From Cyclobacterium sp. SYSU L10401 (lineage in GTDB: Bacteria > Bacteroidota > Bacteroidia > Cytophagales > Cyclobacteriaceae): 64,000 bases of DNA. The stretch is from NCBI RefSeq assembly GCF_010993705.1, contig NZ_WOFO01000002.1:186001-250000 (forward strand). The letters are read 5' to 3'. This document shows, piece after piece, positions 1-13,708 of the stretch (the stretch's first letter is position 1; every line of letters starts with the position of its first letter). Position numbers and translations under genes: made by a program. Under the pieces are notes generated by a model. It did not search any database. It was given only the letters and a program-made list of their open reading frames with translations, and was not told the origin of the DNA.

Positions 1-55
1 ACAAAAAAATAATCATCCAGTTAGCCCAAAAAATAGCGGCATTTTTTAAGGTCAG
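1..55 (-). pseudogene. Fragment of a second DUF4407 gene, cut off at about position 55
   Basis: Read on the minus strand, positions 55 to 2 encode LTLKNAAIFWANWMIIFL. This matches, with two substitutions, the last transmembrane segment of the intact DUF4407 protein encoded at 6668-7741 (LTLKNTAIYWANWMIIFL). DNA identity is also obvious over about 50 bases and stops abruptly near 55, just before the stop codon of the glycosyltransferase gene at 61-63. Only the 3-prime part of this copy can exist, and it continues out of the window to the left. The N-terminal two thirds are absent here, so this is a truncated copy. How much of the C-terminal part survives cannot be seen. Confidence 0.8.
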
Positions 56-60
56 ACAAA

Positions 61-1275
61 TTATTCGTCTAAAACTTTCCGATAGGTTTCGCAAAGTTTG
101 CCTACCAATTTCCTGTTGTCGAACCGTTGAGTAACGAAATCTATACCATTTTTGCCCATCTCGTCACGTAAAAGCTGGTTGTTTACCAAATGTTCGATTT
201 TTTCAGCAAGTGCCTCAATATCCCTTTCAGGTACTAAAATCCCGGTTTGATTAACCAATATGCTCTCAGGAATTCCATTGTGAAAAGTGGAAATCACCGG
301 AAGCCCCATTATCTGAGCTTCCTGAAGTACCAAGCCTTGCCCTTCTGTATTGCCGTCGGAAGCTGTTATACTTGGTAAAACGAAAATATCGGATACGGCA
401 TAGAATTGCATTATTTCTTTCTGATCCCTGGGCCCGTGAAGAAAAACCCTGTCGGTTAAACCAAGTTCGTCAATTAATTCAACCAAATTATTGTACAATT
501 CCCCACCACCGATAATATGGTATTCCAATCCGTGATTCACTGCCTGAGCTTTGCTAAATGCCATGATACTGTAATAAATTCCTTTTTTTTCTACCAGCCG
601 GGCTACCGTTAATAGTTTTAGTCCGGACTTTTTTTCAGTATTTCTTTGCTGGGCCCAATCTTCCAGGTTTACACCAATGGGAATGGTACTTATTTTTTCC
701 GCCGGAAAACCAAGCATTATGATCTTTTCTCTAAGGTAATTTGAAATGGTTATAAAATGGTCAAATTGGGGAATGATATTTTCATAATACCCTGCATCCA
801 ACCTCTACCTGGTAGCATCGTAGCCATAAAAGGACAATATCATTTTTCCCGTGAAAATATCTAAACTTTTTCCATATACGGCTATTTTACCCATGGTGCC
901 AAAATGGCAATGGATAATATCAAACGGTGGTCTATTAAGAAATGGAAGCAGCCTGAAAAACAGGTTAATTCTAAATCGGACAGGAATTTTTAAGGAAAGA
1001 ATCTTGCTGATTACTTCAATTTTTCCTGCATTTTTAAGAATATAGAATATGCATTTCAATTTGGCAACCAATTTATTTTCAGGCAGGTTTGGGGGTGAAA
1101 AAGTACGGCTTAATAACCCGTATTTTTTCACCTTTGGATGCACTTTACTTTCCCGGACTCTGCGGGAGGGAAATATTTCCACCTCATGTCCCTGATCAAT
1201 CAATCCCGTCACCTGATTCAGAATAAAGGTTTCGGATAGCTTGGGAAAAACCTCCACTATAAATGCAATCCTCAT
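61..1275 (-). pseudogene. GT4-type glycosyltransferase interrupted by an in-frame amber codon
   Basis: Two open frames, 805-1275 and 61-801, lie in the same reading frame and are separated only by a TAG at 805-807. Read through, they give one protein of about 404 residues. The N-terminal domain starts MRIAFIVEVFPKLSETFI, typical of exopolysaccharide GT4 enzymes. The C-terminal GT-B domain has the donor-binding signature EGQGLVLQEAQIMGLPV. The sequence around the stop (FYGYDATR, stop, RLDAGYYENI) reads as continuous family sequence, so a single substitution to TAG is the simplest explanation. The enzyme would add a sugar to a cell-surface polysaccharide at the cytoplasmic face of the membrane. 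It is the last gene of the locus before the DUF4407 junction. A sequencing error is the main alternative. Confidence 0.85.
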
Positions 1276-1294
1276 GAGCAGGTTGTTTTGGATT

Positions 1295-2062
1295 TTATGA
1301 ATATGAATTTTTTGGATAATTCTTCCGCAAAAATTTCAAATCCTTTGGAGTCAAAAAATGTTTCTGGCGGTGAAAGCAAATGAAATCATTCTTAAATCTG
1401 AACAATTCATACTTGTCCGATAAATGATCTATAGAGCTGGCTATTTCGGTATTTTTCAAATGCTTGTGTTCATACAAAATTATCGTCGGCTGGTATTTCC
1501 CCAGATCCAATTGGCATAGTATTTTCCAGTCATATCCCTCAGTATCTACATGCAGCAAGTCCACCTGGCTTAATGCGAAATTGGACATCAATGCAGGTAA
1601 AGTAATCCCTGTTATTTTAATAGATTTGATAAATGGCTCCAAAATGCCATCCATGTGAGTGATAATATGTTCTTTGTTAAAAGATCCTATCTGATCGTAC
1701 CATTCGGGTAAATTCGATATGACATACTTTGCGTGCTCATCCACAAAATAAAAATCCTGATTTATACCTTCATTTACTGCACCGTTAAAAAACAGAAAAC
1801 GATCCGGATGGCCAAGGGACAAATAATTTTTCTTTAGTCGCTCAAATAAATAGGGTACTGGCTCTACAAATATGCCTCTCCATTTTTTATTCTTACTGAT
1901 CAGGTCAAATATAGGATCTCTTGTCTTTCCATCATTGGAACCGATTTGTAGAATGATTACCGATTTATTTCCTAGTACCTTAGTGATCCATTTAGTTAAA
2001 AATGAAACGCTATCGGGTTTGCCACGCTGCATTGCATTTTTATAAAGTGCGTGAAGATTCAT
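1295..2062 (-). CDS. FkbM family SAM-dependent methyltransferase
   Basis: The product (255 residues from the chosen ATG) carries a class I methyltransferase SAM-binding region, LQIGSNDGKTRDPIFDLI, followed by GIFVEPVPYLFERLKKNY and a later LLHVDTEGYDWKIL. These are the signatures of the FkbM family, whose members O-methylate sugars and other polar substrates. An in-frame ATG at 2116 would add 18 residues but would lie 77 bases inside the upstream glycosyltransferase gene. The ATG at 2060-2062 leaves a 23-base overlap and the following sequence (MNLHALYKNAMQ) looks like a natural start. Its position among glycosyltransferases suggests that it methylates a glycan made by this locus. The substrate is unknown. 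Confidence 0.8.
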   Translation of the reverse strand: MNLHALYKNAMQRGKPDSVSFLTKWITKVLGNKSVIILQIGSNDGKTRDPIFDLISKNKKWRGIFVEPVPYLFERLKKNYLSLGHPDRFLFFNGAVNEGINQDFYFVDEHAKYVISNLPEWYDQIGSFNKEHIITHMDGILEPFIKSIKITGITLPALMSNFALSQVDLLHVDTEGYDWKILCQLDLGKYQPTIILYEHKHLKNTEIASSIDHLSDKYELFRFKNDFICFHRQKHFLTPKDLKFLRKNYPKNSYS

Positions 2063-3428
2063 GGCGGATAGTTGGGTTTTTAATATAGTCTTCAATAAAT
2101 GCGATGCCCTTATCAAAATCCCCAGAGTCTAGCATTTTTTCTTTTAATTTTTTAATGTTACTTACAAAGTAGTTCCTATTGTTAATAAGCTGATCAATTT
2201 TTAATTCTATGGATTTAGGATTTTCCTTTTTAAGATTCCCCCGAAGTCCCACTTTATGGTATACTACCCTGGCAGCATTACCCTTTTGGTCCAAATCGGG
2301 ATTCAGAGGAAATACCAACATGGGTACCTCGAGCATGATACACTCCGTTACGGACTGCATTCCTCCATGGTTGATCATCAGGGCAGTCTTTTCTAAAACA
2401 GAAATTTGAGGGACATCATTAAAAAAATAAATATTATTAAAACCTGATTTAAGTGAAGAAATACCCCTTCCAAAAGACAGTATTAAAATAAAATCATTTC
2501 GCTTTGAAATAATAGAGATTAATTTCCTGAAAATTAAAAACCTAGATTTATTATATTTAAAATCATAGGATCCAAATGAACAAAACAAAATTTTTGAATT
2601 AGAATTAAGATCGGAATCTAAAATACTTTTTAATCTATCTAAATTAGAATCATTGCAGAAATAATGACTCCTATTAAAATCAACTACTGGACCAACATGT
2701 GTTTGATTTTTGTTATATTGTCTAGGGAAATCAAAATATTTAGGAGATAAAATTATTTCCGGAACAAATTTCCAACCGAAATGAGTACATCTTTTAGTAT
2801 TAATAATTGAATTAAAATTTAGGTTATACAATTTACAATATTCTCTTACTAAATAAAGATGGGAAATACTATAAATAGATAATTGTTGATATTTATTAAT
2901 AGCATACTGGTATAATAACCTTTTTGCCCAAATAAATAAAATAATAATTTTATCTTTAAAATTTCTGCGAAAAAACTTTGGAATTACATTAGATGTGAAA
3001 GGTGGGATAATTTTGTCAAAATTAAGACTTACTTTCGTACATGTTATTATAAATGGAATATTCTTTTCCCATAAAATAATGGAATAAAAAATTAATGACA
3101 AATCCACTATAAATAATGAAGGATTATACTTACGAATAATAGAATTGAAAATTGAACCTGATAAAAATTCCCTTTTAAAATCAGATTTAGCTTGATAAAA
3201 TAAAAGTAAATTAGAACGAGAAAAAAAATTATTGGTTCTATTTCTCGAAATATTAAAATCTTTTATAAACTCATATTTAAAACCTTCATTTGATAATAGT
3301 TCTAAATATTTATTAGAAAAAATTATATATATAATCTCATATCCTTTAGACCTTAAGGATTTAGCAATTAGGAAACTAGAATTTAAATGACTTGGAGTTT
3401 CAAGGATAAAAAAAATAATATACTTCAT
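2040..3428 (-). CDS. GT1/MGT-like glycosyltransferase
   Basis: This 462-residue protein has a GT-B layout. Its C-terminal donor-binding motif (NHGGMQSVTECIMLEVPML, then DLDQKGNAARV) matches the nucleotide-sugar site of UDP-glucuronosyl and macrolide glycosyltransferases (family GT1). The N-terminus MKYIIFFILETPSHLNSSF fits the acceptor domain of that family. No signal peptide is seen, so it should act in the cytosol. The gene is extremely rich in A and T, with AAT, ATT and TTA codons dominating, unlike genes beyond 6.7 kb. It starts one base after the end of the frameshifted thioredoxin-like gene and overlaps the FkbM gene, so the set is probably co-transcribed. The acceptor is unknown. A role in modifying a lipid, peptide or glycan made by the same island is inference. 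Confidence 0.78.
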   Translation of the reverse strand: MKYIIFFILETPSHLNSSFLIAKSLRSKGYEIIYIIFSNKYLELLSNEGFKYEFIKDFNISRNRTNNFFSRSNLLLFYQAKSDFKREFLSGSIFNSIIRKYNPSLFIVDLSLIFYSIILWEKNIPFIITCTKVSLNFDKIIPPFTSNVIPKFFRRNFKDKIIILFIWAKRLLYQYAINKYQQLSIYSISHLYLVREYCKLYNLNFNSIINTKRCTHFGWKFVPEIILSPKYFDFPRQYNKNQTHVGPVVDFNRSHYFCNDSNLDRLKSILDSDLNSNSKILFCSFGSYDFKYNKSRFLIFRKLISIISKRNDFILILSFGRGISSLKSGFNNIYFFNDVPQISVLEKTALMINHGGMQSVTECIMLEVPMLVFPLNPDLDQKGNAARVVYHKVGLRGNLKKENPKSIELKIDQLINNRNYFVSNIKKLKEKMLDSGDFDKGIAFIEDYIKNPTIRHESSRTL

Positions 3429-3429
3429 A

Positions 3430-3905
3430 TCAAAATGAATTATTTAACAAATAATAATTAATTTCTGAAAATACCAAATTAATTTTCCCTGGTTCTAAGT
3501 AATCAATATTAGCAATTTCTCCAGAATTCAAATATAAGACTGATGGGTAAATTGTTCTTAAACCATTTTGAAAAAGTATATTTTTTCATCTATCAATATA
3601 TTTTTCTTTTTATCTATATCTATTCCAAGTCTCAGATTAACATCTTTTTTTGAAACAACATTTGTAAGTATATAAAAAATATTTTCGTTTGAATCAACAT
3701 TTTCCAATAAATATTGATCTGCAGCATTTATACACCCAGTGCATCCTGAATTTGGTATAACGAACAGAATATTAACATCATTAAATTCTGTAGAATGAAT
3801 TTTACTTAAAGATTTGTTTAACTTATTATATTGAATATCTTTTTCTTTACAAGAATACATAATAAAAATTAATAATAAAACATTAAATAAACTAGTTTTA
3901 TTCAT
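3430..3905 (-). pseudogene. Thioredoxin-like lipoprotein with CxxC, frameshifted in a T run
   Basis: The gene starts at 3905 with a lipoprotein signal (lipobox ending in Cys19) and a thioredoxin-type active site, SGCTGC with Cys55 and Cys58. The frame closes at 3558 after EKIYFFKMV. If one T is restored in the minus-strand run of five Ts (3571-3575), the frame instead continues as YFFQNGLRTIYPSVLYLN and ends at a TGA at 3430-3432, two bases before the next gene. The extension contains the Tyr-Pro-Ser stretch expected for the cis-Pro loop of a thioredoxin fold. The original product would be about 157 residues, periplasm-facing and membrane-anchored, with a likely disulfide or redox role. It overlaps the DUF4221 gene upstream by eight bases. 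A base-calling error in the homopolymer is possible. Confidence 0.75.
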
Positions 3906-5055
3906 CTTTACTTAATTTAAATATATCGAATACCAAATTATCTTCATCTTCAATTGCAAGCTTCATTATATGAATTCCGTTTTTATTATAAAATTGATAA
4001 TTAGGATGATAGACATATTTTCCTAAGTTAACTTCTCCAATTTTTTTCAATTTTGAATTTAATACGATTATAGATGCGTCCCTAAATCTACTTTTAATAA
4101 GATCTCCAGAATAAAAATCTTCCTCATTCATTGAATTATAAGCGACTCTATAATACATTTGACTAAATTCATCAAAGTGAATTGAACTATAAGTTGGCTG
4201 AGATCTTAAAAAGTAAGATTCTTCAACTGTAGGCGGGGGGTCGATCTTATTTGCAGTTGAAAGTGGTTTAACTTTATCAATAAAGCTGCTTTTTGCCAAA
4301 TATTTTTCAGATTTTCTATTTTTTCCAATCAAATAAATATTATTGTCAATAGGAAAGCTTACGATAAATTTTTTTTCAATTGGGTTATAAGAATTATACA
4401 TAAAATGTAATGCTGTACCCCAAATACCTGTAGAATACATTTTTGGATATTCAAAAAAATAGTTTACTGATCTATCATACAAATCTAGTTCTAAGATTAA
4501 TTTTTCATTACTATCGCTTGATTTTGAATATTTTAATCTTGAACCAAATGAGTTAAGTAATAACTTATTACCAATTTTAACCATTGGAGTGGTATTAGAA
4601 ATATAAGGCCTTACTTGATACCTATGGCCATCAGAGATTAAATTATATTTATTTTTAATCTTGCCTGAGCTATCAATTATATGTAATAAACCATTATTGT
4701 AAGAATATATAAAGATAGAATCAAGAGAGTGAACGAGCAGCCCAGAAACATCACCAACGCCATTTGGTCCATTTTTCTCCATATTAATATAAAACTGGCT
4801 ATTTCCAGTTTCATAATCATAAAATATTAAATCATTATTAAACTTATTCATTAAAACAAAATATTTTGACGTATCATTTTCAAAATATTGAAAATAATTT
4901 CCCATTTTTGATGTTAATGAGTCTAAAGGAAATATTTTTTCACCAATTTTTTTAAATTTTATTTCATTTTCCGGTTCAATATTTGAGCCATTTTTATTCA
5001 TTGAATCACAGCTCCATATCAAAAATATACTAAAGTATAAAAATCTAATTCGCAT
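3898..5055 (-). CDS. DUF4221-family lipoprotein, probably beta-propeller
   Basis: The 385-residue product begins with a short lipoprotein signal (LIWSCDSMN, lipidated Cys16). It continues with repeated strand-rich segments of the type YFQYFENDTSKYFVLMNKF and DYETGNSQFYINMEKNGPNG, which I recognise as the DUF4221 family common in Cytophagales. The family is uncharacterised and resembles six-bladed propeller lipoproteins that sit next to small secreted peptides in Bacteroidota. It should be anchored in the outer or inner membrane facing the periplasm or the outside. The gene follows the Cys-rich peptide gene with a strong hairpin between them and overlaps the thioredoxin-like gene by eight bases. 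Codon use is very AT-rich. Function is unknown. A sensor or partner of the upstream peptide is inference. Confidence 0.65.
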   Translation of the reverse strand: MRIRFLYFSIFLIWSCDSMNKNGSNIEPENEIKFKKIGEKIFPLDSLTSKMGNYFQYFENDTSKYFVLMNKFNNDLIFYDYETGNSQFYINMEKNGPNGVGDVSGLLVHSLDSIFIYSYNNGLLHIIDSSGKIKNKYNLISDGHRYQVRPYISNTTPMVKIGNKLLLNSFGSRLKYSKSSDSNEKLILELDLYDRSVNYFFEYPKMYSTGIWGTALHFMYNSYNPIEKKFIVSFPIDNNIYLIGKNRKSEKYLAKSSFIDKVKPLSTANKIDPPPTVEESYFLRSQPTYSSIHFDEFSQMYYRVAYNSMNEEDFYSGDLIKSRFRDASIIVLNSKLKKIGEVNLGKYVYHPNYQFYNKNGIHIMKLAIEDEDNLVFDIFKLSKDE

Positions 5056-5105
5056 ATTTTTTAAAGGTAAATTTTTATTTAATAGATATTTTAGTTAGTT
5101 ATTAT

Positions 5106-5141
5106 AAGATATGGTTACAATGATAATTGTAACCATATCTT
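5106..5141. terminator. Perfect 16-bp stem hairpin between peptide and DUF4221 genes
   Basis: Positions 5106-5121 and 5126-5141 are perfect inverted repeats (AAGATATGGTTACAAT and its complement) around a four-base loop. There is no long U tract on either side, only a short AU-rich stretch. The hairpin lies just after the stop codon of the peptide gene and about 50 bases before the DUF4221 gene. It could be a weak terminator or an mRNA-stabilising structure that keeps peptide transcript above lipoprotein transcript. The structure is seen; the role is inferred. Confidence 0.6.
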
Positions 5142-5148
5142 CCATAGA

Positions 5149-5355
5149 TTAACATCCTCCCCCACTAATAAAACAATGAGGTTTATTCAGATCCTCAAGG
5201 CAAATGTAATCATTAAGGTCATCTGGCAATACGCATCTGCCATTTACTCCCTCTGCTGTAGTCTGAGTACATTGCGCATCCAGTTTAGGGACGGACAACC
5301 CTGCTACTGCTATAAGTGAAAACACAATAGCAGTCATTTTTTTTAGAATTTTCAT
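5149..5355 (-). CDS. Small secreted Cys-rich peptide (68 residues)
   Basis: The product starts MKILKKMTAIVFSLIAVAGL, a clear Sec signal peptide, with probable cleavage after LDA or LDAQ. The mature part is about 40 residues with five cysteines, is acidic, and ends in SGGGC at the C-terminus. Q before the first Cys argues against a lipobox. It resembles in size and context the NVEALA-type peptides that precede propeller lipoproteins in Bacteroidota, but it lacks the NVEALA motif. The gene heads the AT-rich set (peptide, DUF4221, thioredoxin-like, GT1, FkbM). A secreted signal, adhesive or antimicrobial peptide, or a modified peptide, are all possible. I do not recognise the family. Confidence 0.6.
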   Translation of the reverse strand: MKILKKMTAIVFSLIAVAGLSVPKLDAQCTQTTAEGVNGRCVLPDDLNDYICLEDLNKPHCFISGGGC

Positions 5356-5992
5356 AATAAAATAATTTAGTTGAAATTAAATTTAGATTGAAGAAAATAA
5401 TAAATTATAAAATTTCCAAATTTATTTAAATAAAATTCCTAACAAATACTTTTAATAGAAAATTTTAAACAAATACTTTTAATAGAAAATTTTGTTTTAA
5501 ACTAAAATTTAATTTAAGTACCGAAATAAATAATAATTTAAAATTAAATAGCAGATTATTATTTAGTAATCTTATTTTATAAAATATTTCAGAAATAAAT
5601 TAGGTTTTGACAGAAAAAAATGAAAGCAAACTGTAAAAATGCGATTTAAATAGGCTATTGGTCGATAATTCAAGAGTAAATGTTGGCTATACAAATTTTC
5701 ATTGGGTTCGGGAATCAAAAATTTCAAATAATATATTGGATTTGATTAGCACTGAAAGCAAGAAGCGGGTCATAGGGGAAAAAATATAACAGGAAGTATG
5801 GAGCAGTTTTGGTGAAATCTGGATTCGTGCAATCTATACTCCCATAACCCATATTGCCTGCTAATCATAGTATCAGAGGTATGCTTTGCCCCATTGGTGG
5901 TAAATTCCTGAGTTTTGGAGTATATGTAGGGAAATGCTTCAACCCGGTACCAGCTCCAGAAACCGCTACGAATCACCGGTCGCTTTCGTTGT
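5356..5992. other. AT-rich intergenic region, no convincing gene
   Basis: This stretch holds the upstream region of the peptide gene, a 27-base tandem duplication at 5441-5493, and from about 5700 onward more GC-balanced sequence that looks like decayed coding DNA. The open frame at 5770-5976 on the minus strand has no recognisable motif and no partner, so it is not called. The change in base composition near 5650 marks the right edge of the AT-rich island. Confidence 0.5.
5441..5493. repeat. Two tandem copies of a 27-base AT-rich unit
   Basis: The unit AACAAATACTTTTAATAGAA plus AAATTTTA occurs at 5441-5467 and again from 5468 to 5493, essentially without mismatch. It lies upstream of the peptide gene start (5355), about 90 bases away, so it falls within its promoter region. 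A perfect tandem duplication in such sequence is most simply a recent slippage event. Confidence 0.8.
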
Positions 5993-6041
5993 CAGGGTTG
6001 CAAACCCTGTTTATCTGGATTCGACATGGCAAATGTCGAAT
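5993..6041. repeat. Two-hairpin REP-like repeat, copy 1
   Basis: The 49-base element consists of an inverted repeat CAGGGTT-GCA-AACCCTG (5993-6009) and a second one ATTCGACAT-N5-ATGTCGAAT (6019-6041), joined by a nine-base spacer. A copy with 46 of 49 matches lies at 6601-6649 in the same orientation. It sits 12 bases past the end of the VapC remnant. Paired hairpins of this kind resemble REP/BIME elements mobilised by RAYT-type transposases, but no transposase is present in the window. Confidence 0.75.
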
Positions 6042-6052
6042 AGCACGTTATT

Positions 6053-6212
6053 TTACCAGAACAAAATCTTTAAATCAGGCAAATACTTAAAATGGGCATC
6101 ACGGGTAACTAATGGTAAACCGTGTTCTTGGGCCATTGCAGCTATCCAAATATCATTTTCTGGAATAGGTGTAAACCAATAACGATATTTGTATCGAGCA
6201 AGCAGGGATCAT
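6053..6212 (-). pseudogene. Remnant of a VapC-type PIN-domain toxin
   Basis: Directly after the antitoxin gene, with an overlapping ATGA, the minus strand encodes CLLDTNIVIGLHL in one frame, which is the N-terminal signature of VapC PIN domains with the first catalytic Asp. In another frame it gives PIPENDIWIAAMAQEHGLPL followed by VTRDAHF, which is the C-terminal part with the last acidic residues. About half of a normal 130-residue toxin is missing between these, and the ATG is one base out of frame with the N-terminal piece. The toxin is therefore internally deleted and frameshifted and should be inactive. Such toxins are RNases that are neutralised by the cognate antitoxin. Confidence 0.8.
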
Positions 6213-6436
6213 TTCCAGTCTTCTTCATGGATGTTTTCACAACAGGATGCTATTGTTTTCTCCATTTCTTCCCCTTCTTCTTTAGTCAGTACCCCCAAAA
6301 GATCATAAACAGATGGCTGTTGGGCTTCTTTCTGCTTTTCCTTTTTCAATAAAGTTTCCAGCTTACCAATGATCTTTTCATCACTAATCGATAACAGGTT
6401 CTGTATAAAATTTAATTTTCTGGTAGTTATATCCAT
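6209..6436 (-). CDS. Orphan antitoxin-like protein (VapB position)
   Basis: This 75-residue acidic, Lys-rich protein (MDITTRKLNFIQNLLSISDE at the start) has the size, composition and location of the small antitoxins that precede PIN-domain toxins in Bacteroidota. Its TGA stop overlaps the ATG of the toxin remnant, as in an intact TA operon. It has a predicted helical middle with KKEKQKEAQQPS and an acidic tail likely to have contacted the toxin. With its toxin broken it may persist only as an orphan regulator. Family assignment rests mainly on context. Confidence 0.65.
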   Translation of the reverse strand: MDITTRKLNFIQNLLSISDEKIIGKLETLLKKEKQKEAQQPSVYDLLGVLTKEEGEEMEKTIASCCENIHEEDWK

Positions 6437-6600
6437 TCTTTTAACAGATTTGTTCTAATGATGTAAATATAACGTTTTTATGGTAATACTTAGTTTCTTT
6501 AATTTGTTCGCTCCTGCCTAATGGATTCCCGATCGCCGTCGGAAAGCCAGGGTAATTTGTTTTCCACAAGAAAATTAGCTCCAATTTGCTGTATGTATAT

Positions 6601-6649
6601 CAGGCTTGCAAACCCTGATTATCCGGATTCGACATGGCAAATGTCGAAT
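6601..6649. repeat. Two-hairpin REP-like repeat, copy 2
   Basis: This is the second copy of the element at 5993-6041, in direct orientation, with three differences, one of which breaks a pair in the first hairpin (CAGGCTT against AACCCTG). The second hairpin is identical. It ends 18 bases before the 3-prime end of the DUF4407 gene and could also act as a transcription-end structure for it. The two copies bracket the TA remnant. Confidence 0.75.
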
Positions 6650-6667
6650 AGCGTATTATCTGCTGTT

Positions 6668-7741
6668 TTATTTTTCCCCAAGCAATCCCAGTTCAAAATC
6701 GACACGATGCGCCTTCCTTTTATCATACACGTCATCAAAAACTTCCTTTCTCAATGCGCTATCCCCGGATTTTTTGTACCATTGCTCCTCTCCTGCAAGG
6801 TTAATGCCTGATTCATGGAAATCCAGCAACTGGTCATAAGGTCCTCTGCTTCCCATCAGCTTGACCAGGATGGGTGCCATCTCGATCATGACAAACAAAA
6901 AAATAATCATCCAGTTGGCCCAATAAATGGCCGTATTTTTTAGCGTCAAATCCCTGAAAGCCTGTAACCGGGCTGCCAATCCATCATAAGCATCCAGGGA
7001 CACCATTTGGTTTTGAAATTCCTGTTCCTTCAATACATTGATTCTCCTAATTTCCGCTTCCAGATCCTGAATCCTGGCTTCATTTAGCTTTTGGGTATAT
7101 TGGTAATCCTGCTCTGCCTGATCCAGTTGCCTTTCTTTCTTCTCAGCATTTACGCCAATGCCCGCAAGCCCGGTGGTCCCTTCCGTTTTTACGCCAAATC
7201 TCTCCTGATCATATTCCTTTTGCTTTTGGTTTCGAAAATCCTCTTTAGCGGCAATCCCAGCCCTGAGACCCTCAATTTTACTTTCCAAATCATTGATTTC
7301 CGGATACCCTTCTGCAATTTTTTCCCGGCTTTTTTCTATCGTAGCCAGACGCTGTTCATCCAGTTCTCTGTTGATTTCCTTTTCAAAAATCCTTAGCTCC
7401 AATGGTTTGGCAATAACCAGCGCGATCAGCAAAGCCAATACCAGGCGGGGAAGGGCTTGTTTGAATTCCGGAAGAAATTGATCCTGCTTTTTTAAGGTGG
7501 AAACAATATACCGGTCCAAATTAAAAATCATCAAGGCCCAGATCAAAGCAATGACCAAAATTGCCCATAAAGAGGAAAAAATGGTAGACAAGGCATAGCT
7601 TACAGATAGTCCTGCAAAAACTGCCGTAAAAAGGACCGTTGCCCCAATCCCTATAAACCTGTTTGTACTTGCAGGACACCTCCTGACCAATGGCAGGTAA
7701 GCACCGGAACAAAATATCAGGAATTTTTCGAAATTATTCAT
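6668..7741 (-). CDS. DUF4407 membrane protein
   Basis: The 357-residue protein starts MNNFEKFLIFCSGAYLPLV and fits the DUF4407 family. It has two close transmembrane helices at about residues 28-75, a third at about 100-120 (LVLALLIALVIAKPLEL), a long charged coiled coil at about 125-255, and a fourth helix near 268-292 (IYWANWMIIFLFVMIEMAPI). The family sits in the inner membrane and has no established function. The gene appears monocistronic. The last helix is duplicated at the left edge of the window, showing that this gene family took part in a rearrangement here. Confidence 0.85.
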   Translation of the reverse strand: MNNFEKFLIFCSGAYLPLVRRCPASTNRFIGIGATVLFTAVFAGLSVSYALSTIFSSLWAILVIALIWALMIFNLDRYIVSTLKKQDQFLPEFKQALPRLVLALLIALVIAKPLELRIFEKEINRELDEQRLATIEKSREKIAEGYPEINDLESKIEGLRAGIAAKEDFRNQKQKEYDQERFGVKTEGTTGLAGIGVNAEKKERQLDQAEQDYQYTQKLNEARIQDLEAEIRRINVLKEQEFQNQMVSLDAYDGLAARLQAFRDLTLKNTAIYWANWMIIFLFVMIEMAPILVKLMGSRGPYDQLLDFHESGINLAGEEQWYKKSGDSALRKEVFDDVYDKRKAHRVDFELGLLGEK

Positions 7742-8063
7742 GAATAGGTTAATGTTTAGCGGAATTCATTTCAAAACGCATACCATGCCTGCTTGTGTAT
7801 AGATGTGAGAAAAACAATTGTCATCCAAAAACGGATTTAAACCATAACTAATTAAAAATCAATTTATTATAAATATTTTTTCTAATAAATGTATGGAATT
7901 TCCGGATTGAATCATGCTATGGATGGTTGAAGTTTATCACCAAACCGATTCAAAACTCAGTTTTGTCCGCTTATTGTGTCCGCTTTTGAGACGGTACATG
8001 TTGCTATCTGGTTTTAATATTCAAATTATTATAGTAGTTTAGACCTGAATTATAAACCAAGCC
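7742..8063. other. Intergenic region between divergent genes
   Basis: This region of about 320 bases separates the DUF4407 gene and the SGNH hydrolase gene, which point away from each other, so it must hold both promoters. It is AT-rich in the middle (7850-7900). I see no convincing operator, repeat or small gene. Confidence 0.5.
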
Positions 8064-8714
8064 ATGAAAAATTTCTTCTACCTATCCCTGCTGTTTATTA
8101 TCAGCAGTTCCCTGGCGTTTGCCCAGGATCCTACCCGCTTTTCTGATCAGGTAAGCCAGATCTCCAAAGATTATCCGGCCTCCGATTACCAATCTTCAGT
8201 AGTTTTTACCGGTAGCTCCACTATCCGGATGTGGAAAAGTTTGCAGCAGGATTTTCCGGGAGAAAGAATTGTAAATGCTGGTTTTGGGGGATCTCAGGCA
8301 AGTGACTTGCTGCATTATCTGGATGAGCTTGTGTTGGACTACAAGCCGGAAAAGGTATTTATATATGAGGGAGATAACGACATATCTGCAGGTAAGTCCA
8401 CAGAAGAAATCATCACTACTTATAACCTGATCGTAGAACAAATTGAAAATGAATCGCCAAATACCGAAATCGTCCTGATCAGCGCCAAGCCCAGCGTGGC
8501 CAGGTGGAATCTGGCTGATGAATACATTGCACTTAATGCAGCCATGAAAAAGTATGCCCGTGGAAAGAAAAAAGTAAAGTATGCTGATCTGTGGAAGCCG
8601 ATGTTGAATTCAGAAAAGAAACCAATGGAAGATATTTTTTTAAAGGACAACCTGCACATGAACGAGAAAGGATACGCCATCTGGGCCAAGACCATCAGCA
8701 AATTTTTGAAATAA
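8064..8714 (+). CDS. GDSL/SGNH-family hydrolase, secreted
   Basis: The 216-residue product has a signal peptide cleaved after LAFA (residue 20). SGNH blocks follow in order: FTGSSTIRMW with the likely nucleophile Ser52, NAGFGGSQ with the oxyanion Gly, YEGDNDI with the block III Asn105, and DNLHMNEKG with Asp195 and His198. It should be a periplasmic or secreted esterase of the acetylhydrolase type, possibly de-acetylating glycans. It is a single gene, with repeats downstream. The exact substrate cannot be read from sequence. Confidence 0.88.
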   Translation: MKNFFYLSLLFIISSSLAFAQDPTRFSDQVSQISKDYPASDYQSSVVFTGSSTIRMWKSLQQDFPGERIVNAGFGGSQASDLLHYLDELVLDYKPEKVFIYEGDNDISAGKSTEEIITTYNLIVEQIENESPNTEIVLISAKPSVARWNLADEYIALNAAMKKYARGKKKVKYADLWKPMLNSEKKPMEDIFLKDNLHMNEKGYAIWAKTISKFLK

Positions 8715-8774
8715 AACGTGAATTCTATTAAAGAACGTCCTTAAATACCGGCTATGTTGTCCCTGCGATACCTA

Positions 8775-8809
8775 CCGTCATCGCGAGCACAGCGAAGCGA
8801 TCTGAATCG
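8775..8809. repeat. Interspersed GTCATCGCGAG repeat, copy 1
   Basis: CCGTCATCGCGAGCACAGCG followed by AAGCGATCTGAATCG is one of two near-identical copies in this intergenic stretch (second at 8950-8985, three mismatches). This type of GCGAGC-AGCGA-GCGATCT repeat is known to be scattered through many Bacteroidota genomes. The two copies are in direct orientation. Confidence 0.75.
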
Positions 8810-8949
8810 AAGCGAAGGTATAAATCCATCGAGAATAGGGATTAGGATAGTGATTCGATTTACGTACGGCTTTAGACTGCCGCGGGTGCCCAGCGTTTTA
8901 ACGAAATTCGATTATGTTCAGGTTGGCACCCCCGCAGTGACGCTAAACC

Positions 8950-8985
8950 CCGTCATCGCGAGCGCAGCGAGGCGATCTGAATCGG
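8950..8985. repeat. Interspersed GTCATCGCGAG repeat, copy 2
   Basis: This second copy (CCGTCATCGCGAGCGCAGCG, then AGGCGATCTGAATCGG) lies 175 bases from the first in the same orientation. The whole 8715-9580 interval lacks a believable gene, and the open frames there run through these repeats. The sequence between copies may itself be part of a larger composite repeat. Confidence 0.75.
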
Positions 8986-9220
8986 AGCCTGAACATACGG
9001 AAATCGGAAAAAGGACATCAAGATCGGAAACGCATACAGGTATTACAGATGGTGTGTATGTTAAATACCTGTAAATCAACATATTAAAAATCCACATCGC
9101 CACCCCGATTTCTGTGTTTTTTAAAATGTTAATTTTCACTCTGACAGCAATGCCCGGAATCGGTAAAGATTTCAAAATAAGTAACAATTAACGAATTAAT
9201 ATTTAAGATATTACCGAATA

Positions 9221-9276
9221 AATCCCCCCTGACTCTGGTCAGGGCAGGCTGTACCCTCCACTGCGGCGGAGGGATT
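9221..9276. repeat. Palindrome-rich intergenic element
   Basis: Two hairpins, CCCTGAC-N4-GTCAGGG (9227-9244) and CCCTCC-N8-GGAGGG (9254-9273), are enclosed by an outer AATCCC/GGGATT pairing (9221-9226 with 9271-9276). The nested layout suggests a folded RNA or a small non-autonomous mobile element. No terminal duplication was identified. Confidence 0.6.
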
Positions 9277-9414
9277 TTGTGCAATCTGGATTTTTTACTT
9301 TCTTTTTTTGTAAACATTTCTATAAACCTTATCTAGAATCGAGCTCAGGTTATTAAATTAAGTCATCCTCGCCTTATTCATCTTCCTGAAATCCCCTTTC
9401 AACTGCAAAAAACA

Positions 9415-9445
9415 ATTGGTCTTTGATTTTGTATCATTAACTTTG
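9415..9445 (+). promoter_or_regulatory. Candidate Bacteroidota sigma-ABfr promoter of the porin gene
   Basis: ATTG at 9415-9418 (one mismatch to the -33 TTTG), a 19-base spacer and TAACTTTG at 9438-9445 (exact TAnnTTTG) fit the Bacteroidota housekeeping promoter. Transcription would start near 9452, giving a leader of about 130 bases before the porin ATG at 9581. This is prediction by pattern only. Confidence 0.4.
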
Positions 9446-9580
9446 TAGGAAAATTAACAATTAGGTAATATTAAATTAATATATGCTTAATCTTAGAGCT
9501 TCCGTTATTTGCACTTTATTCCTCGATAAGCCCCTTCAAGCCCGATGGGTATCTATGACAACAAATAAATTCCGCCGGGC

Positions 9581-10783
9581 ATGTCTTTAAAATTTTTGAT
9601 GGCATATATTGCCTTGCTGGTTCCTGGTATGACCCATGCATTTCAGGGAGCCAATGATCCTGTTCCCCAATCAAAATATAGCTATGGCTCCAGGGGTTTT
9701 CAATTCTCTTCCACTGATGGCAAATACCAGTTAAACCTGGGCGGAAGGCTTCAATTTCGTTTTGCCACACCGAGCGACCAGGATCCTATTACGTATGATG
9801 ACTTTTTTGAACAAAGACAAAACCTCTTTAAAATCAACAGAGCCAGACTAAAGGTCGGAGGCCACGCCCACCAACCCTGGCTTAAATATTATTTTGAATA
9901 TGAACTAGGGGTCTCCAGGCTACTGGACTTCCGGGTGATGGTTGAAAAATGGCCTTGGCTGAATTTTAAAATCGGACAATGGAAGTCTGAATATTCCAGG
10001 GAAAGGGTAATATCAAGTGGGAACCAGCAAATGATGGAAAGGTCCATTATCAACAGACCCTTTACACTGGACCGGCAGCAGGGAGCCAGCATTTATGGCA
10101 GATTGGACGGAGGAGGGCTGGCTGATTTCAATTATCACCTGATGGTTTTAACGGGAACCGGAATCGGTGCCAGAAATAATGATGACCAAAAATTGATGTA
10201 TTCAGGCAGGCTGCAATGGAATATCCTGGGAGATGGTGTATCAATGAGTGGATCCGCCCTGAACCGTTTTGAAAAACCAGTGGCATCTCTGGCCTGGGCA
10301 GGGACGACCAATACCAGCCAATATACCCGATACTCTTCTCAGGGAGGCGGTCAATTGGTAGGTTTTGAAGGAAATGTCCCGGGACGGTATAACATAGATC
10401 AATTTCTCCTTGAAAGTACCCTGAAATACAAAAACTTTAGCTGGCACAGTGAATTCCACCAGAAAAGTATAAAGGACAACCAACTGAACCAGTTGACGAA
10501 ATTAAATGGTTGGTTTGTCCAGGGTGGTTTATTATTGAATCCCCAATCCATAGAAAAAGAAGCTCCACTCTTGGAATTGGCATCCAGGTATGCCATATAC
10601 CAACCAAATCAACAACTTCAAATGAACAGTGAGGAAGAAATATCATTGGCGGTCAATTGTTTTTTTAATGGACACCAGAATAAGTTAACCGCTGACATTA
10701 CCCATTTTGAATTTGAAGAAAAATCCGTCAACCGGGAGGCCAGCGGTTGGCGTTTCAGGATTCAGTATGATTTTTCATTTTAA
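9581..10783 (+). CDS. Phosphate-selective porin O/P-like outer-membrane protein
   Basis: The 400-residue protein has a signal peptide (MSLKFLMAYIALLVPGMTHA) and then alternating strand-rich sequence ending in an aromatic C-terminus (FRIQYDFSF), as outer-membrane beta barrels do. The N-terminal region YQLNLGGRLQFRF and the stretch INRARLKVGGHAHQPWLKYY followed by FEYELG match the OprO/OprP porin family. Members form channels for phosphate or other anions, but in Bacteroidota specificity is often unknown. It stands alone, with the candidate promoter above and the SAM riboswitch downstream. Confidence 0.85.
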   Translation: MSLKFLMAYIALLVPGMTHAFQGANDPVPQSKYSYGSRGFQFSSTDGKYQLNLGGRLQFRFATPSDQDPITYDDFFEQRQNLFKINRARLKVGGHAHQPWLKYYFEYELGVSRLLDFRVMVEKWPWLNFKIGQWKSEYSRERVISSGNQQMMERSIINRPFTLDRQQGASIYGRLDGGGLADFNYHLMVLTGTGIGARNNDDQKLMYSGRLQWNILGDGVSMSGSALNRFEKPVASLAWAGTTNTSQYTRYSSQGGGQLVGFEGNVPGRYNIDQFLLESTLKYKNFSWHSEFHQKSIKDNQLNQLTKLNGWFVQGGLLLNPQSIEKEAPLLELASRYAIYQPNQQLQMNSEEEISLAVNCFFNGHQNKLTADITHFEFEEKSVNREASGWRFRIQYDFSF

Positions 10784-10854
10784 CTAGTCAAAAGCAGTTT
10801 TGGATTTGGATAAAAGGCCGGCAGTCTGTTTATTTGCATAAAATTCAGGTGACT

Positions 10855-10958
10855 GATTTATAAAGAAGAGGTGAGAGAACAGGCTCCATGAACCTCTGGC
10901 AACCTTCCGGATGTAGGAAAGGTGCCAATACCTGCCCCTAAGGGACCGATAAATTAGC
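10855..10958 (+). promoter_or_regulatory. SAM riboswitch (S-box class)
   Basis: The stretch contains the conserved S-box elements AGAGGTGAGAGAACAGGCTC, GAACCTCTGGCAACC and AAAGGTGCCAATACCTGCC. A P1 helix is formed by TTTAT near 10857 and ATAAA near 10950. It lies 130 bases upstream of metZ on the same strand. Binding of S-adenosylmethionine should lower metZ expression when methionine is plentiful. The folding pattern is clear from sequence. The off-switch mechanism is not. Confidence 0.9.
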
Positions 10959-11023
10959 CTTTATGACGCAACATTCAGCATTCCAGATTTCTTTTACCCT
11001 TATTCATCCAAACAGCTGCATCA

Positions 11024-11049
11024 CCCGTCTGATCATTAAGATAGACGGG
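11024..11049 (+). promoter_or_regulatory. Hairpin between SAM riboswitch and metZ
   Basis: CCCGTCT (11024-11030) and AGACGGG (11043-11049) pair perfectly around a 12-base loop, about 40 bases upstream of the metZ ATG. It has no U tract, so it is not a standard terminator. It may belong to the expression platform of the riboswitch by masking or exposing the translation start region. This role is inference. Confidence 0.45.
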
Positions 11050-11089
11050 AAGAGGATAGCTACATCTTGTCATCCAGAAAAAAATATTC

Positions 11090-12271
11090 ATGCCCGATCA
11101 TAAAAATTTTGAAACCCAGGCCGTTCGTATCAATGCTTCCTCCTCTAATCAAAGGGAACATTCAGCACCCATTTACCTGAGCTCCAGTTTTGTATTTGAC
11201 TCAGCAGAACAGGCCAGACAAATGTTTGCCGATGAGATTCCCGGTAATATCTATTCCAGGTATGCCAATCCCAACACCAGCGATCTGATCGAAAAGGTAT
11301 GCGCTGCAGAAGGAACCGAAAATGGGGTTTGTACGGCATCGGGGATGGCGGCGATGTTTGGAAGCATGGCCGCCTTATTGCAGCAAGGGGATCACATTCT
11401 GGCTGCCAGATCTCTTTTTGGTTCTACCCATCAATTGTTGACCAGGGTTTTTCCAAAATGGGGGATTTCACATACATATGGTGACATATCAGCCATAGGA
11501 GAATGGGAAAAGCTACTCCAGCCCAATACCAAAATGGTATTTATCGAAACCCCTTCCAATCCGGGATTGGAGATTATTGACCTGGAATACATCGCCAATT
11601 TCGCCAATGCCCATAACCTGATCCTGGTGGTAGACAATTGTTTTGCTACCCCCTACCTTCAGCAACCAGCTAAATGGGGAGCACATATCGTTACGCACAG
11701 TGCTACCAAGTTTATCGATGGACAAGGAAGGGTCCTGGGAGGCCTGATATTGGGCAAAAAAGAATTGATTGAGGAGGTACAATTTTTTATGCGGCATACC
11801 GGTCCCTCGCTCTCTCCCTTCAATGCCTGGGTCTTGGCCAAAAGTATGGAAACATTGGCCGTCCGCATGGACCGCCATTGCGAAAGTGCCTTGAAAATCG
11901 CAAAATATTTTGAAGGGAATGCAGAAATAGAAACGGTCAAATACCCCTTTCTTCCCTCCCATCCCCAATACCAGCTGGCAAAAAAACAAATGCGTCATGG
12001 AGGAGGCATCATTACCCTTACTTTAAAAGGTGGCCTGGTCAGAGCCAAAAAGTTTATCGATCAATTGCAAATGATCACGGTCACTGCCAACCTGGGTGAC
12101 AGCCGAAGCATCATTACCCACCCTGCATCCACTACCCATAGCAAATTGACGGAGGAGGAAAGGGAAAGGGTAGGAATACTCAATGGATTGGTAAGGTTAT
12201 CCGTCGGTTTGGAGCATGTAGATGACATCATCCTGGATATTTCAAGAGCCCTGGATCAATCCAAGACCTAA
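11090..12271 (+). CDS. metZ: O-succinylhomoserine sulfhydrylase
   Basis: This 393-residue PLP enzyme belongs to the Cys/Met metabolism family. The PLP lysine is Lys207 in SATKFIDGQGRVLGG, a form typical of MetZ. The tyrosine/arginine pair YSRYANPN (residues 55-62) and the VVDNCFATPYLQ stretch are also family signatures. It makes homocysteine from an activated homoserine and sulfide in methionine synthesis, in the cytosol. The SAM riboswitch directly upstream supports the assignment. An O-acetylhomoserine sulfhydrylase is the nearest alternative. A terminator follows. Confidence 0.9.
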   Translation: MPDHKNFETQAVRINASSSNQREHSAPIYLSSSFVFDSAEQARQMFADEIPGNIYSRYANPNTSDLIEKVCAAEGTENGVCTASGMAAMFGSMAALLQQGDHILAARSLFGSTHQLLTRVFPKWGISHTYGDISAIGEWEKLLQPNTKMVFIETPSNPGLEIIDLEYIANFANAHNLILVVDNCFATPYLQQPAKWGAHIVTHSATKFIDGQGRVLGGLILGKKELIEEVQFFMRHTGPSLSPFNAWVLAKSMETLAVRMDRHCESALKIAKYFEGNAEIETVKYPFLPSHPQYQLAKKQMRHGGGIITLTLKGGLVRAKKFIDQLQMITVTANLGDSRSIITHPASTTHSKLTEEERERVGILNGLVRLSVGLEHVDDIILDISRALDQSKT

Positions 12272-12299
12272 ATCAAAGTACGATAAGAAAACAAAAAAG

Positions 12300-12325
12300 C
12301 CTTCTTTTAATAAGAAGGTTTTTTT
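12300..12325. terminator. Rho-independent terminator after metZ, probably bidirectional
   Basis: CCTTCTT (12300-12306) pairs with AAGAAGG (12312-12318) and is followed by seven Ts. On the other side lies an A-rich run, so it can also end transcription coming from the opposite strand. It separates metZ from the convergent efflux genes. Confidence 0.85.
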
Positions 12326-12397
12326 GTTTTCATGGGCATTATTCAAAATCCATGTGCCCTGATTATCGTTCCAATTATTAATTTTAGTACATTCAAT

Positions 12398-13696
12398 TTA
12401 TGGTGTTGTGCCTTCTGATCTGCTGACCGGTTTTTCATTTTCCAGTTGGGTACTCACCACGAAATAGGGTCCGGTAATCACTTCCTGACCTTCTTGTAGC
12501 CCCTCCAAAATTTCGATGTTCTCGAAGTCAGAAATACCGGTTTTCACTTCCTGAATCCTGGCCACTTCCCCATCCTTCAAAAACACCAGCTCTTTCAAGT
12601 TTCCTTCTTGTTGCCCGGATGAAAAGGTCTGGTCTGCACGGGTAGTCACTGCAGCCAGGGGAATAGAGAGCACATCTGCTTTTCTTTCTGTGATGATTTC
12701 CACACTTGCGGTCATCCCAGGCCTGAATGGAAAAGGATTTTCTTTGGTTACCAATTCTTTATAGGAGTCGTTTAAAATCCTTATCCTCACTTCAAATTCG
12801 GTAACAGCATCGGCACTTGCTTTCTCATTGGCAGAATTGGCTATAGCCGTAACTATTCCCGTAAACTTTTTGCCACTGAATGCATAGGAATCCACATCGA
12901 TTAAGGTAGTGTCCTGCATACTGATACGGACAATATCATTTTCATTAACATTTACCCTGACTTCCATGCGTGACAAATCAGCTATTCTAAGCATTTCCGT
13001 TCCCGCCATTTGCGCCGTACCTACTACCCTCTCACCCTTTTCTACCAAAAGGCTGGAGACCGTACCATCTGTGGGAGAGTACACATTGGTCAAACGCAAG
13101 TTCTCGGAAGCTTCCTCCACCGAAGCCTGCGCACTTTTCACAATATACTCAGCGGCAAGTACTGTCTGTCTTGCAGCCTCCAGATCATTTTCAGCTGTCA
13201 AAAAATCAGCTTTGGCCTGCTCAAAATCAGCATCTGATATGACGCTATCTTCATACAGCTTCAGGTTTCTGTTATAGGCCAATTCGGCCCGGTTGAATTG
13301 GGCTTCAGAACGCTTCAGAGTGGCCCTGGATTGCGCCAAATTGGCCATCTGTTGATTGAGGTTTGCCTGGGACCTGTCCAGGGCTGAAATAAAATTATCG
13401 GGCCGGATTTTTACCAAAAGATCCCCAATCTTAACAGAATCCCCCTCTTCTACATTAAGTTCAATGATTTCACCAGCTACATCAGGACTCATTTTTACCT
13501 CTCTTTCCGGCTGGACCACTCCGGAAGCACTGACCTTTTCTATGATATCCTTTTTGGATACGCTTTCGATTTCCACTGCTATCGGCTTTTCGCCTCCCAC
13601 CCATCCGGCATTCCTGGCGATAATGGTGAAAACTACTAAAACAGCTACTACTGCCAATAAAATAAATATTAATTTATTTGACTTTTTCTTTGCCAT
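12398..13696 (-). CDS. HlyD/MacA-type efflux periplasmic adaptor subunit
   Basis: The 432-residue protein has one N-terminal membrane anchor (LIFILLAVVAVLVVFTIIAR). A first half-lipoyl segment follows (VSASGVVQPEREVKMSPDVA), then a long coiled-coil hairpin at about residues 105-200, the return lipoyl half (VYSPTDGTVSSLLVEKGE), and barrel domains. It would bridge an inner-membrane pump and a TolC-type channel. The gene lies 12 bases downstream of a TolC-like gene, but no ABC or RND pump gene follows: downstream is metZ, convergent. The pump partner must be encoded elsewhere, or export is shared with another system. Confidence 0.88.
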   Translation of the reverse strand: MAKKKSNKLIFILLAVVAVLVVFTIIARNAGWVGGEKPIAVEIESVSKKDIIEKVSASGVVQPEREVKMSPDVAGEIIELNVEEGDSVKIGDLLVKIRPDNFISALDRSQANLNQQMANLAQSRATLKRSEAQFNRAELAYNRNLKLYEDSVISDADFEQAKADFLTAENDLEAARQTVLAAEYIVKSAQASVEEASENLRLTNVYSPTDGTVSSLLVEKGERVVGTAQMAGTEMLRIADLSRMEVRVNVNENDIVRISMQDTTLIDVDSYAFSGKKFTGIVTAIANSANEKASADAVTEFEVRIRILNDSYKELVTKENPFPFRPGMTASVEIITERKADVLSIPLAAVTTRADQTFSSGQQEGNLKELVFLKDGEVARIQEVKTGISDFENIEILEGLQEGQEVITGPYFVVSTQLENEKPVSRSEGTTP

Positions 13697-13708
13697 TATT
13701 TCTTAAAA

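What the first reader, a model, noticed from the sequence alone, without database searches (positions are those of the whole stretch)
2040..5355. AT-rich cassette pairing a secreted Cys-rich peptide with a propeller lipoprotein, a CxxC lipoprotein, a GT1 enzyme and an FkbM methyltransferase
Seen: five tightly spaced genes on one strand with much higher A+T than the DNA right of 5.7 kb. They begin with a 68-residue secreted peptide (five Cys, C-terminal SGGGC) and a DUF4221 lipoprotein, with overlapping junctions among the later genes. Known: in Bacteroidota, small secreted NVEALA-type peptides lie next to propeller lipoproteins of unknown role. Inference: a peptide whose disulfides are set by the CxxC lipoprotein, is recognised by the DUF4221 protein, and may be glycosylated or methylated. 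This would be a new secreted-peptide system, horizontally acquired.
Basis: partly seen in the sequence, partly recalled or inferred. Interest (0 to 1): 0.72.

Follow-up and report, generated by a model that had tools for sequence, protein, structure and literature searches.

The report
Mobile operon for disulfide-bonded secreted peptide
A small block of acquired DNA in a bacterium of the Cyclobacteriaceae carries a recurring gene set that looks made for producing, cross-linking and perhaps sugar-coating a short secreted peptide, a role that would be new for these genes.

Summary
A secreted Cys peptide, a DUF4221 propeller lipoprotein and a thioredoxin-like CxxC lipoprotein form a conserved module. 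In a sample of DUF4221 genes of the family, 18 of 40 of one group (B) have the peptide, against 0 of 49 of the other group (A) and 3 of 126 control genes; 13 of those 18 also have the CxxC gene, against 2 of 22 without a peptide. The full order peptide-DUF4221-CxxC-GT1-FkbM-GT4 recurs in three other genomes of two other genera. The window copy is a 5.6-kb insertion between imperfect direct repeats, with the empty site in sister species; its CxxC and GT4 frames are interrupted. New rule: all 6 peptides in loci with the GT1 tail have five mature Cys, the last C-terminal; all 29 others tested have an even number. This resembles glycocin F (two disulfides plus an S-glycosylated C-terminal Cys). 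Best reading: a Sec-exported, disulfide-bonded peptide, probably S-glycosylated at the extra Cys, with the DUF4221 propeller as its binding partner. Glycosylation and activity are inferred, not shown.

The parts
5149..5355 (-). Precursor of a secreted peptide, 68 aa; hydrophobic signal, likely cut after LDA (by eye); mature about 40 aa with five Cys, last residue Cys
   Evidence: relatives with the same core C-T-x-T..G-x-x-G-R-C..Y-x-C..C-F in G106 (L161) and G130 (L252), both before DUF4221 and CxxC
5106..5141 (-). Hairpin of about 16 pairs between peptide and DUF4221 genes; perhaps an attenuator or mRNA stabiliser favouring the peptide
   Evidence: z -6.5; 18 of 27 such intergenic stretches tested have z < -2
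3898..5055 (-). DUF4221 beta-propeller lipoprotein, 385 aa
3429..3905 (-). Thioredoxin-like CxxC lipoprotein; reading frame interrupted near 3575, the C-terminal part being in another frame
   Evidence: (profile A3, E 2e-16)
2040..3428 (-). GT1 (UDP-glycosyltransferase / macrolide-GT-like), 462 aa, frame open
   Evidence: 44% identical to GT1 in the same place in G143 and G064
1295..2062 (-). FkbM-type methyltransferase, 255 aa, frame open
   Evidence: 53% identical to the one in the same place in G143 and G064
61..1275 (-). GT4 (WcaL-like) glycosyltransferase split by an in-frame stop into 61-801 and 805-1275
   Evidence: one open frame in the cassettes L204, L205, L245
49..5695 (.). Inserted block holding the whole operon
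   Evidence: flanks -294..48 vs 6600..6942 (88%) and -599..-237 vs 5696..6049 (83%); contiguous empty site in G003 (L181) and G006 (L182)
5696..6942 (.). Right-hand repeat region running into the 3' end of the intact DUF4407 gene (6668-7741); a partial copy lies at the left border

Best explanation
A mobile operon that makes a short disulfide-bonded secreted peptide. The precursor goes out by a Sec signal peptide (predicted by eye and by a hydrophobicity rule). Four of its Cys form two disulfides with the help of the operon's own thioredoxin-like lipoprotein (inferred from CxxC, thioredoxin-type profile and linkage). The fifth, C-terminal Cys stays out of the disulfides and is S-glycosylated by the GT1, with the GT4 and FkbM extending or methylating the sugar, as the C-terminal Cys is in glycocin F (inferred from the five-Cys rule). 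The DUF4221 propeller lipoprotein is the cognate binder of the mature peptide, acting as self-protection or as receptor (inferred). The most likely use is antagonism of related bacteria; signalling is next. In this strain the operon is probably no longer fully working, because two frames are interrupted (or the assembly has errors there).
For: Linkage: 18/40 vs 0/49 vs 3/126; peptide x CxxC 13,5,2,20, p 5.5e-5; 16 of 26 class-level CxxC loci read have a DUF4221 match ending within 150 bases upstream. Same six-gene order in L204, L205, L245. Thioredoxin-like: lipobox Cys and CxxC in 25 of 25, Pro in the cis-Pro place in 23 of 25; four of the top five of 23 weak PDB profile matches are thioredoxin or thiol-disulfide proteins (8t4c E 0.0013, DsbC 4fyb 0.035). 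Even mature Cys numbers in 29 of 29 peptides without GT1 and five with a C-terminal Cys in 6 of 6 with it; four core-matched peptides without GT1 lack the extra Cys. Of the 10 genomes with a GT1 at 1e-60, 4 have the cassette and 3 have the GT1 in a locus with a C39 ABC transporter (L249-L251); on named plasmids distant relatives lie with LanC or VKOR and transporter genes. Glycocin F architecture; oxidoreductases in glycocin clusters.
Against: No transporter in the insert and no GG leader, unlike glycocins. The six five-Cys peptides come from 4 loci in 3 genera and 2 peptide families, so about two independent origins. If Cys of the signal part are counted too, only 23 of the 29 others are even. 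Cytoplasmic glycosylation before Sec export would be unusual. GT1, FkbM and GT4 are also common envelope-glycan enzymes (general knowledge). Outside the family the peptide is often replaced by a ~160-aa Cys-pair lipoprotein, so the core triad is not restricted to peptides. No activity or immunity is shown. The CxxC proteins of cassettes L204 and L205 lack the Pro that 23 of 25 have. Three of the 10 GT1 genomes (G437 cut by a contig end, G468, G515) show neither cassette nor C39 transporter.
Confidence: 0.42

Rival explanations
1. The triad makes a disulfide-bonded secreted peptide, but GT1-FkbM-GT4 modify an envelope glycan or lipid, and the extra Cys serves dimerisation, anchoring or a mixed disulfide.
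For: GT4 is WcaL-like; the GT1's PDB matches are UDP-glycosyltransferases and oleandomycin GTs; FkbM enzymes often act on sugars (general knowledge). The triad exists without the tail in most loci.
Against: The tail is found in fixed order behind the triad in 4 genomes of 3 genera, and with it the extra C-terminal Cys.
Confidence: 0.33
2. An envelope redox or assembly system: the CxxC lipoprotein acts on a Cys-pair partner (peptide or 160-aa lipoprotein) and DUF4221 is a scaffold or sensor; the peptide is neither toxin nor signal.
For: In other families of the class the first gene is often a ~160-aa lipoprotein with a Cys pair, followed by DUF4221 and CxxC.
Against: Patchy distribution, tandem diverging peptide-DUF4221 pairs and insertion next to repeats fit a variable accessory trait better.
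Confidence: 0.17
3. Decaying island of unrelated genes; the grouping is accidental.
For: CxxC and GT4 frames are interrupted in the window.
Against: Same order with open frames in L204, L205, L245; association statistics.
Confidence: 0.03

Closest known systems
Glycocins (glycocin F, sublancin)
   Same: Small secreted peptide; in glycocin F two disulfides plus an S-glycosylated C-terminal Cys43 (PMC5890784, passages); own thioredoxin-like oxidoreductases and glycosyltransferase in the cluster (PMC12457901, passages)
   Different: Sec-type signal instead of leader plus peptidase-transporter; GT1 and GT4 instead of the glycocin transferase (GT2 by recall); FkbM and DUF4221 added; glycosylation not shown
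Bacteroidetocins
   Same: Bacteroidota peptide with four Cys and a cluster-borne thiol oxidoreductase whose loss attenuates activity (PMC6671954, passages)
   Different: Bacteroidetocins have a 15-aa GG leader and a peptidase transporter; 'propeller' occurs 0 times in that paper; no glycosyltransferase among the genes named in the passages
NVEALA peptides (PF14055)
   Same: Small exported Cys peptides near propeller lipoproteins (recalled); leaders that look NVEALA-like by eye occur in L025, L092, L093
   Different: Window peptide does not match the model and has no NVEALA motif
BtuG-type surface propeller lipoproteins
   Same: Propeller lipoprotein of Bacteroidota that binds a ligand; among the structural neighbours of the model
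   Different: BtuG binds cobalamin; similarity far below that of 3s9j

Membership tests
DUF4221 (PF13970) | match above the gathering score | tested here: met
   98.3 bits vs 23.4; 3s9j by sequence and structure
NVEALA (PF14055) | match to the family model | tested here: not met
   (no match of the window peptide up to E 1)
Thioredoxin-like oxidoreductase | CxxC in a thioredoxin-type profile with cis-Pro | tested here: inconclusive
   CxxC in 25 of 25, aligned Pro in 23 of 25; weak PDB profile hits to thioredoxin-fold proteins; no consistent Pfam or NCBIfam match
Glycocins | S- or O-glycosylated mature peptide | not testable with these tools
   needs mass spectrometry
Glycocins | four Cys for two disulfides plus one extra Cys (number and placing only) | tested here: met
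   five mature Cys, last C-terminal, 6 of 6; pairing itself not tested
Glycocins | peptidase-domain ABC transporter in the cluster | tested here: not met
   no C39 or ABC match among the insert genes scanned
Glycocins | thioredoxin-like protein in the cluster | tested here: met
   CxxC lipoprotein, frame interrupted in the window, open in L204, L205, L245; fold itself only weakly supported
Bacteroidetocins | double-glycine leader cut by a C39 transporter | tested here: not met
   no GG before the mature part; no C39 match among the insert genes
FkbM methyltransferases (PF05050) | match above the gathering score | tested here: met
   57.2 bits vs 22.7

The most novel reading that the evidence does not exclude
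A Sec-exported glycocin-like peptide class in Bacteroidota: two disulfides set by a dedicated lipoprotein, a C-terminal Cys carrying a (methylated) sugar put on by a GT1-FkbM-GT4 tail that has been swapped between different peptide-DUF4221 pairs, and a propeller lipoprotein as the specificity-matched receptor or immunity protein.
Probability: 0.3. Interest if true: 0.85.

Novelty: new variant of a known kind. Interest (0 to 1): 0.7.

Why it matters
DUF4221 has had a crystal structure since 2011 (3s9j), but the term is in none of the 5.39 million open papers searched. A peptide and an oxidoreductase as steady neighbours give part of the family a testable role. The five-Cys rule predicts the modified atom exactly, so one mass spectrum would decide. 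If right, it adds a Sec-routed, sugar-bearing disulfide peptide class and a new kind of peptide-binding propeller in environmental Bacteroidota.

Tried and rejected
NVEALA membership: no match. GT1 in plasmids: only distant relatives (25-30% identity, 3 records). BtuG-like propellers rank far below 3s9j; other propeller families are not excluded. Papers: NVEALA 0, DUF4221 0; propeller/peptide searches 1 and 0 papers (the one not opened); bacteroidetocin 15 papers, one read in passages; glycocin F search 38 papers, 12 listed, two read in passages; glycocin + Bacteroidetes + glycosyltransferase + disulfide 2 papers, listing only; Cyclobacteriaceae/bacteriocin/propeller 48 papers, 10 listed, none opened. 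PMC10352776 (RiPP mining in Bacteroidales): a find for six terms gave 0 passages.

Results against my reading: in the sample 22 of 40 group-B genes had no peptide by my rule; 5 of 18 with a peptide had no CxxC. The group-B profile was built from mostly peptide-linked proteins, some of which lie in the sample, so the split into A and B is not independent of the peptide. My rule asks for a signal-like start and so does not see GG-leader peptides: a group-A DUF4221 in L023 has such a peptide next to it. Three 'hits' among the controls look spurious, and one hit behind DUF4221 (L146) was a wrong ORF, though a real peptide lies there. The GC difference between peptide-linked DUF4221 and group A is weak (p 0.045). 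Six of the 29 even peptides (L119, L124, L141, L152, L158_2406, L173) have one further Cys within the first 13 residues, and L111 has two in its signal part; these were left out of the count as signal residues. One peptide candidate (L052, 3 Cys, start uncertain) is odd without a GT1 and was outside the test, as were L048, L059, L215 and L235 (4, 4, 2 and 5 Cys by the count; one of the five in L235 lies in the signal part). 'No GT1' for most loci means none in the few kb fetched. G437 has a GT1 at a contig end and cannot be judged.
Full report
1. Observation. The five genes are there, on the minus strand: a 68-aa peptide (5149-5355), DUF4221 (3898-5055; PF13970, 98.3 bits), a small CxxC lipoprotein (3558-3905), a GT1 (2040-3428) and an FkbM methyltransferase (1295-2062). 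DUF4221/CxxC overlap by 8 bases and GT1/FkbM by 23. GC is 21-30% between 2 and 6 kb against 43% from 6 kb on; the peptide gene itself is 39.6%. Two things were missed. The CxxC frame is interrupted: the C-terminal third continues in another frame to about 3429. And a sixth co-directional gene follows, a WcaL-like GT4 split by an in-frame stop (61-801, 805-1275). The genome is of the family Cyclobacteriaceae: a genome called same-family (G072) holds exactly the DUF4221 protein of Indibacter alkaliphilus (L033 = L091; lineage).

2. An insertion. Blast of the region against itself shows imperfect direct repeats around the operon: -294..48 against 6600..6942 (88%) and -599..-237 against 5696..6049 (83%). 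The repeats hold the 3' end of a DUF4407 gene. In G003 (L181) and G006 (L182), same genus, the left flank runs straight into that gene: the empty site. The block is thus about window 49-5695. All 12 genus genomes searched have the DUF4407 gene; none of the 11 others had a close relative of the window DUF4221 (best E 5.6e-32, 29% identity), and none had the GT1 at 1e-60. G008 (L176) carries pieces that look like a DUF4221 gene at the same spot (seen by eye), so it may be a hotspot.

3. The module in other genomes. The own genome has 21 DUF4221 matches. Another locus there (L022) has two 84-aa Cys peptides, three DUF4221 and a CxxC lipoprotein. Searching 99 genomes (own included) with the window DUF4221 gave matches in 25, a good number with a small exported Cys peptide just before and a CxxC lipoprotein just behind. 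A profile of 7 CxxC proteins (A3) found 29 matches in 15 of 60 family genomes (four of the 29 are rows of the profile). By, 22 of the 29 lie behind a DUF4221, overlapping it or within 100 bases; four more have a DUF4221 or fragment within 1 kb upstream; three do not (two of these do not look like the family). A wider profile (25 rows) found the protein in 23 of 295 genomes of the class (34 matches listed); of 26 loci read, 16 have a DUF4221 match ending within 150 bases upstream, and several more have a protein of that size there that my profile did not score.

4. Statistics. From the PF13970 search of 60 family genomes (22 of 60 with matches; the weakest matches not listed) I fetched stretches (72 of the 80 taken, L095-L166, entered the test; the other 8 had been picked for a CxxC or DUF4221 hit and were left out). 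They were aimed at every third of the strongest ~70 places outside the own genome (with near neighbours, about half of these) and at all of the next ~61. With a fixed rule for a small exported peptide with at least two Cys upstream, DUF4221 genes closer to a profile of mostly peptide-linked proteins (B) had it in 18 of 40, those closer to a profile of the common own-genome type (A) in 0 of 49, and other genes of at least 200 aa in 3 of 126 (p 1.7e-10, B against control). Within B, peptide and CxxC go together: 13 both, 5 peptide only, 2 CxxC only, 20 neither (p 5.5e-5) (4 DUF4221 genes too near an end were set aside). The larger, partly biased set gives 21, 8, 3, 24.

5. The six-gene cassette. 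Searching the GT1 led to two genomes with the whole order: G143 (L204) and G064 (L205) both have peptide, DUF4221, CxxC, GT1, FkbM, GT4, frames open. A profile of the three GT1 found 10 of 390 family genomes at 1e-60; one more, G470 (L245), has the full cassette and a second peptide-DUF4221 pair. So the cassette is in 4 genomes of 3 genera. GT1 and FkbM of the window are 44% and 53% identical to those of G143 and G064. Among the 35 sets compared, the DUF4221 of the window is closest to those of G106 and G130, which have the same peptide family but no GT1 tail, not to those of the other cassettes; so the tail seems to have been joined to different peptide-DUF4221 pairs.

6. The peptides. Signal-like N-termini; no double-glycine leader in the window peptide. 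Several core families recur: that of the window is shared with G106 and G130. Similarity of mature parts follows that of DUF4221 (Mantel r 0.25, 0 of 2000 permutations reach it), that of the first 25 residues does not (r 0.0004, 974 of 2000); linked genes share history, so this is not proof of binding. Of 35 peptide-DUF4221 sets, the 29 without the GT1 in the fetched locus all have an even number of mature Cys; the 6 with it (window, G064, G143 twice, G470 twice) all have five and end in Cys. Counting Cys of the signal part as well, 23 of the 29 are even. Four peptides with the same cores (G099, G406, G106, G130) lack the extra Cys, and no GT1 or FkbM is found in the 10.5-13 kb read around them (L252-L255). 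The six are not independent: two core families, four loci. Exceptions and left-out rows are told under Tried and rejected.

8. Mechanism. Shown: conserved module, insertion, interrupted frames, five-Cys rule. Inferred: Sec export; disulfides by the CxxC protein, in line with the argument made for bacteroidetocins that a cluster-borne thiol oxidoreductase likely forms the bonds because Bacteroides lacks general machinery (PMC6671954, passages; whether this holds for Cyclobacteriaceae was not tested); sugar on the extra Cys by analogy with glycocin F, whose Cys43 at the C-terminus bears GlcNAc beside two disulfides (PMC5890784, passages); DUF4221 as cognate binder. Antagonism is favoured over signalling by the patchy, tandem, diverging copies, but nothing here shows it. 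In distant families the first gene is often a ~160-aa lipoprotein with a Cys pair, which keeps a non-toxin role open.

9. Known or new. It works like a glycocin or bacteroidetocin locus, but fails membership tests (no GG leader, no C39 transporter). No paper in the library holds 'DUF4221' or 'NVEALA'. I rate it a new variant of a known kind.

Noticed in passing
L022 (G000:C12:88000-106000), 5179-14892: Second triad locus in the own genome: two near-identical 84-aa Cys peptides, three DUF4221, one CxxC lipoprotein, then an O-antigen-ligase/TPR protein.
   Followed up: partly
L025 (G000:C9:433000-450000), 1081-2539 and 7196-10432: Peptides with a leader that looks NVEALA-like by eye (ALENAVA) before other propeller lipoproteins (PF17170, PF15869) and a DUF4221: the peptide-propeller pairing goes beyond DUF4221.
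   Followed up: partly
L023 (G000:C17:141000-160000), 3413-12221: Two peptides with a GG-like leader, a C39-VKOR-thioredoxin fusion, a group-A DUF4221 and a protein that looks like a C39 ABC exporter: DUF4221 in a classical peptide-export setting.
   Followed up: partly
L256-L259, L262-L267: In other families of the class the peptide is often replaced by a ~160-aa lipoprotein with a Cys pair (such as CVTPAKDC) before DUF4221 and CxxC; no Pfam family above noise for the nine scanned.
   Followed up: partly
window 5992-6044 and 6600-6652: Short repeat (94%) near the insertion border; may have helped recombination.
   Followed up: no
L173 (G090:C89:6000-17000), downstream of the CxxC gene: Two further peptides of 78 and 79 aa with seven Cys each (one of them in the signal part), at +705 and +1178 from the DUF4221 end, followed by another lipoprotein.
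   Followed up: no
L026 (G000:C20:176000-194000) and L094: Arrays of tandem group-A DUF4221 lipoproteins without a peptide by my rule; role unknown.
   Followed up: no
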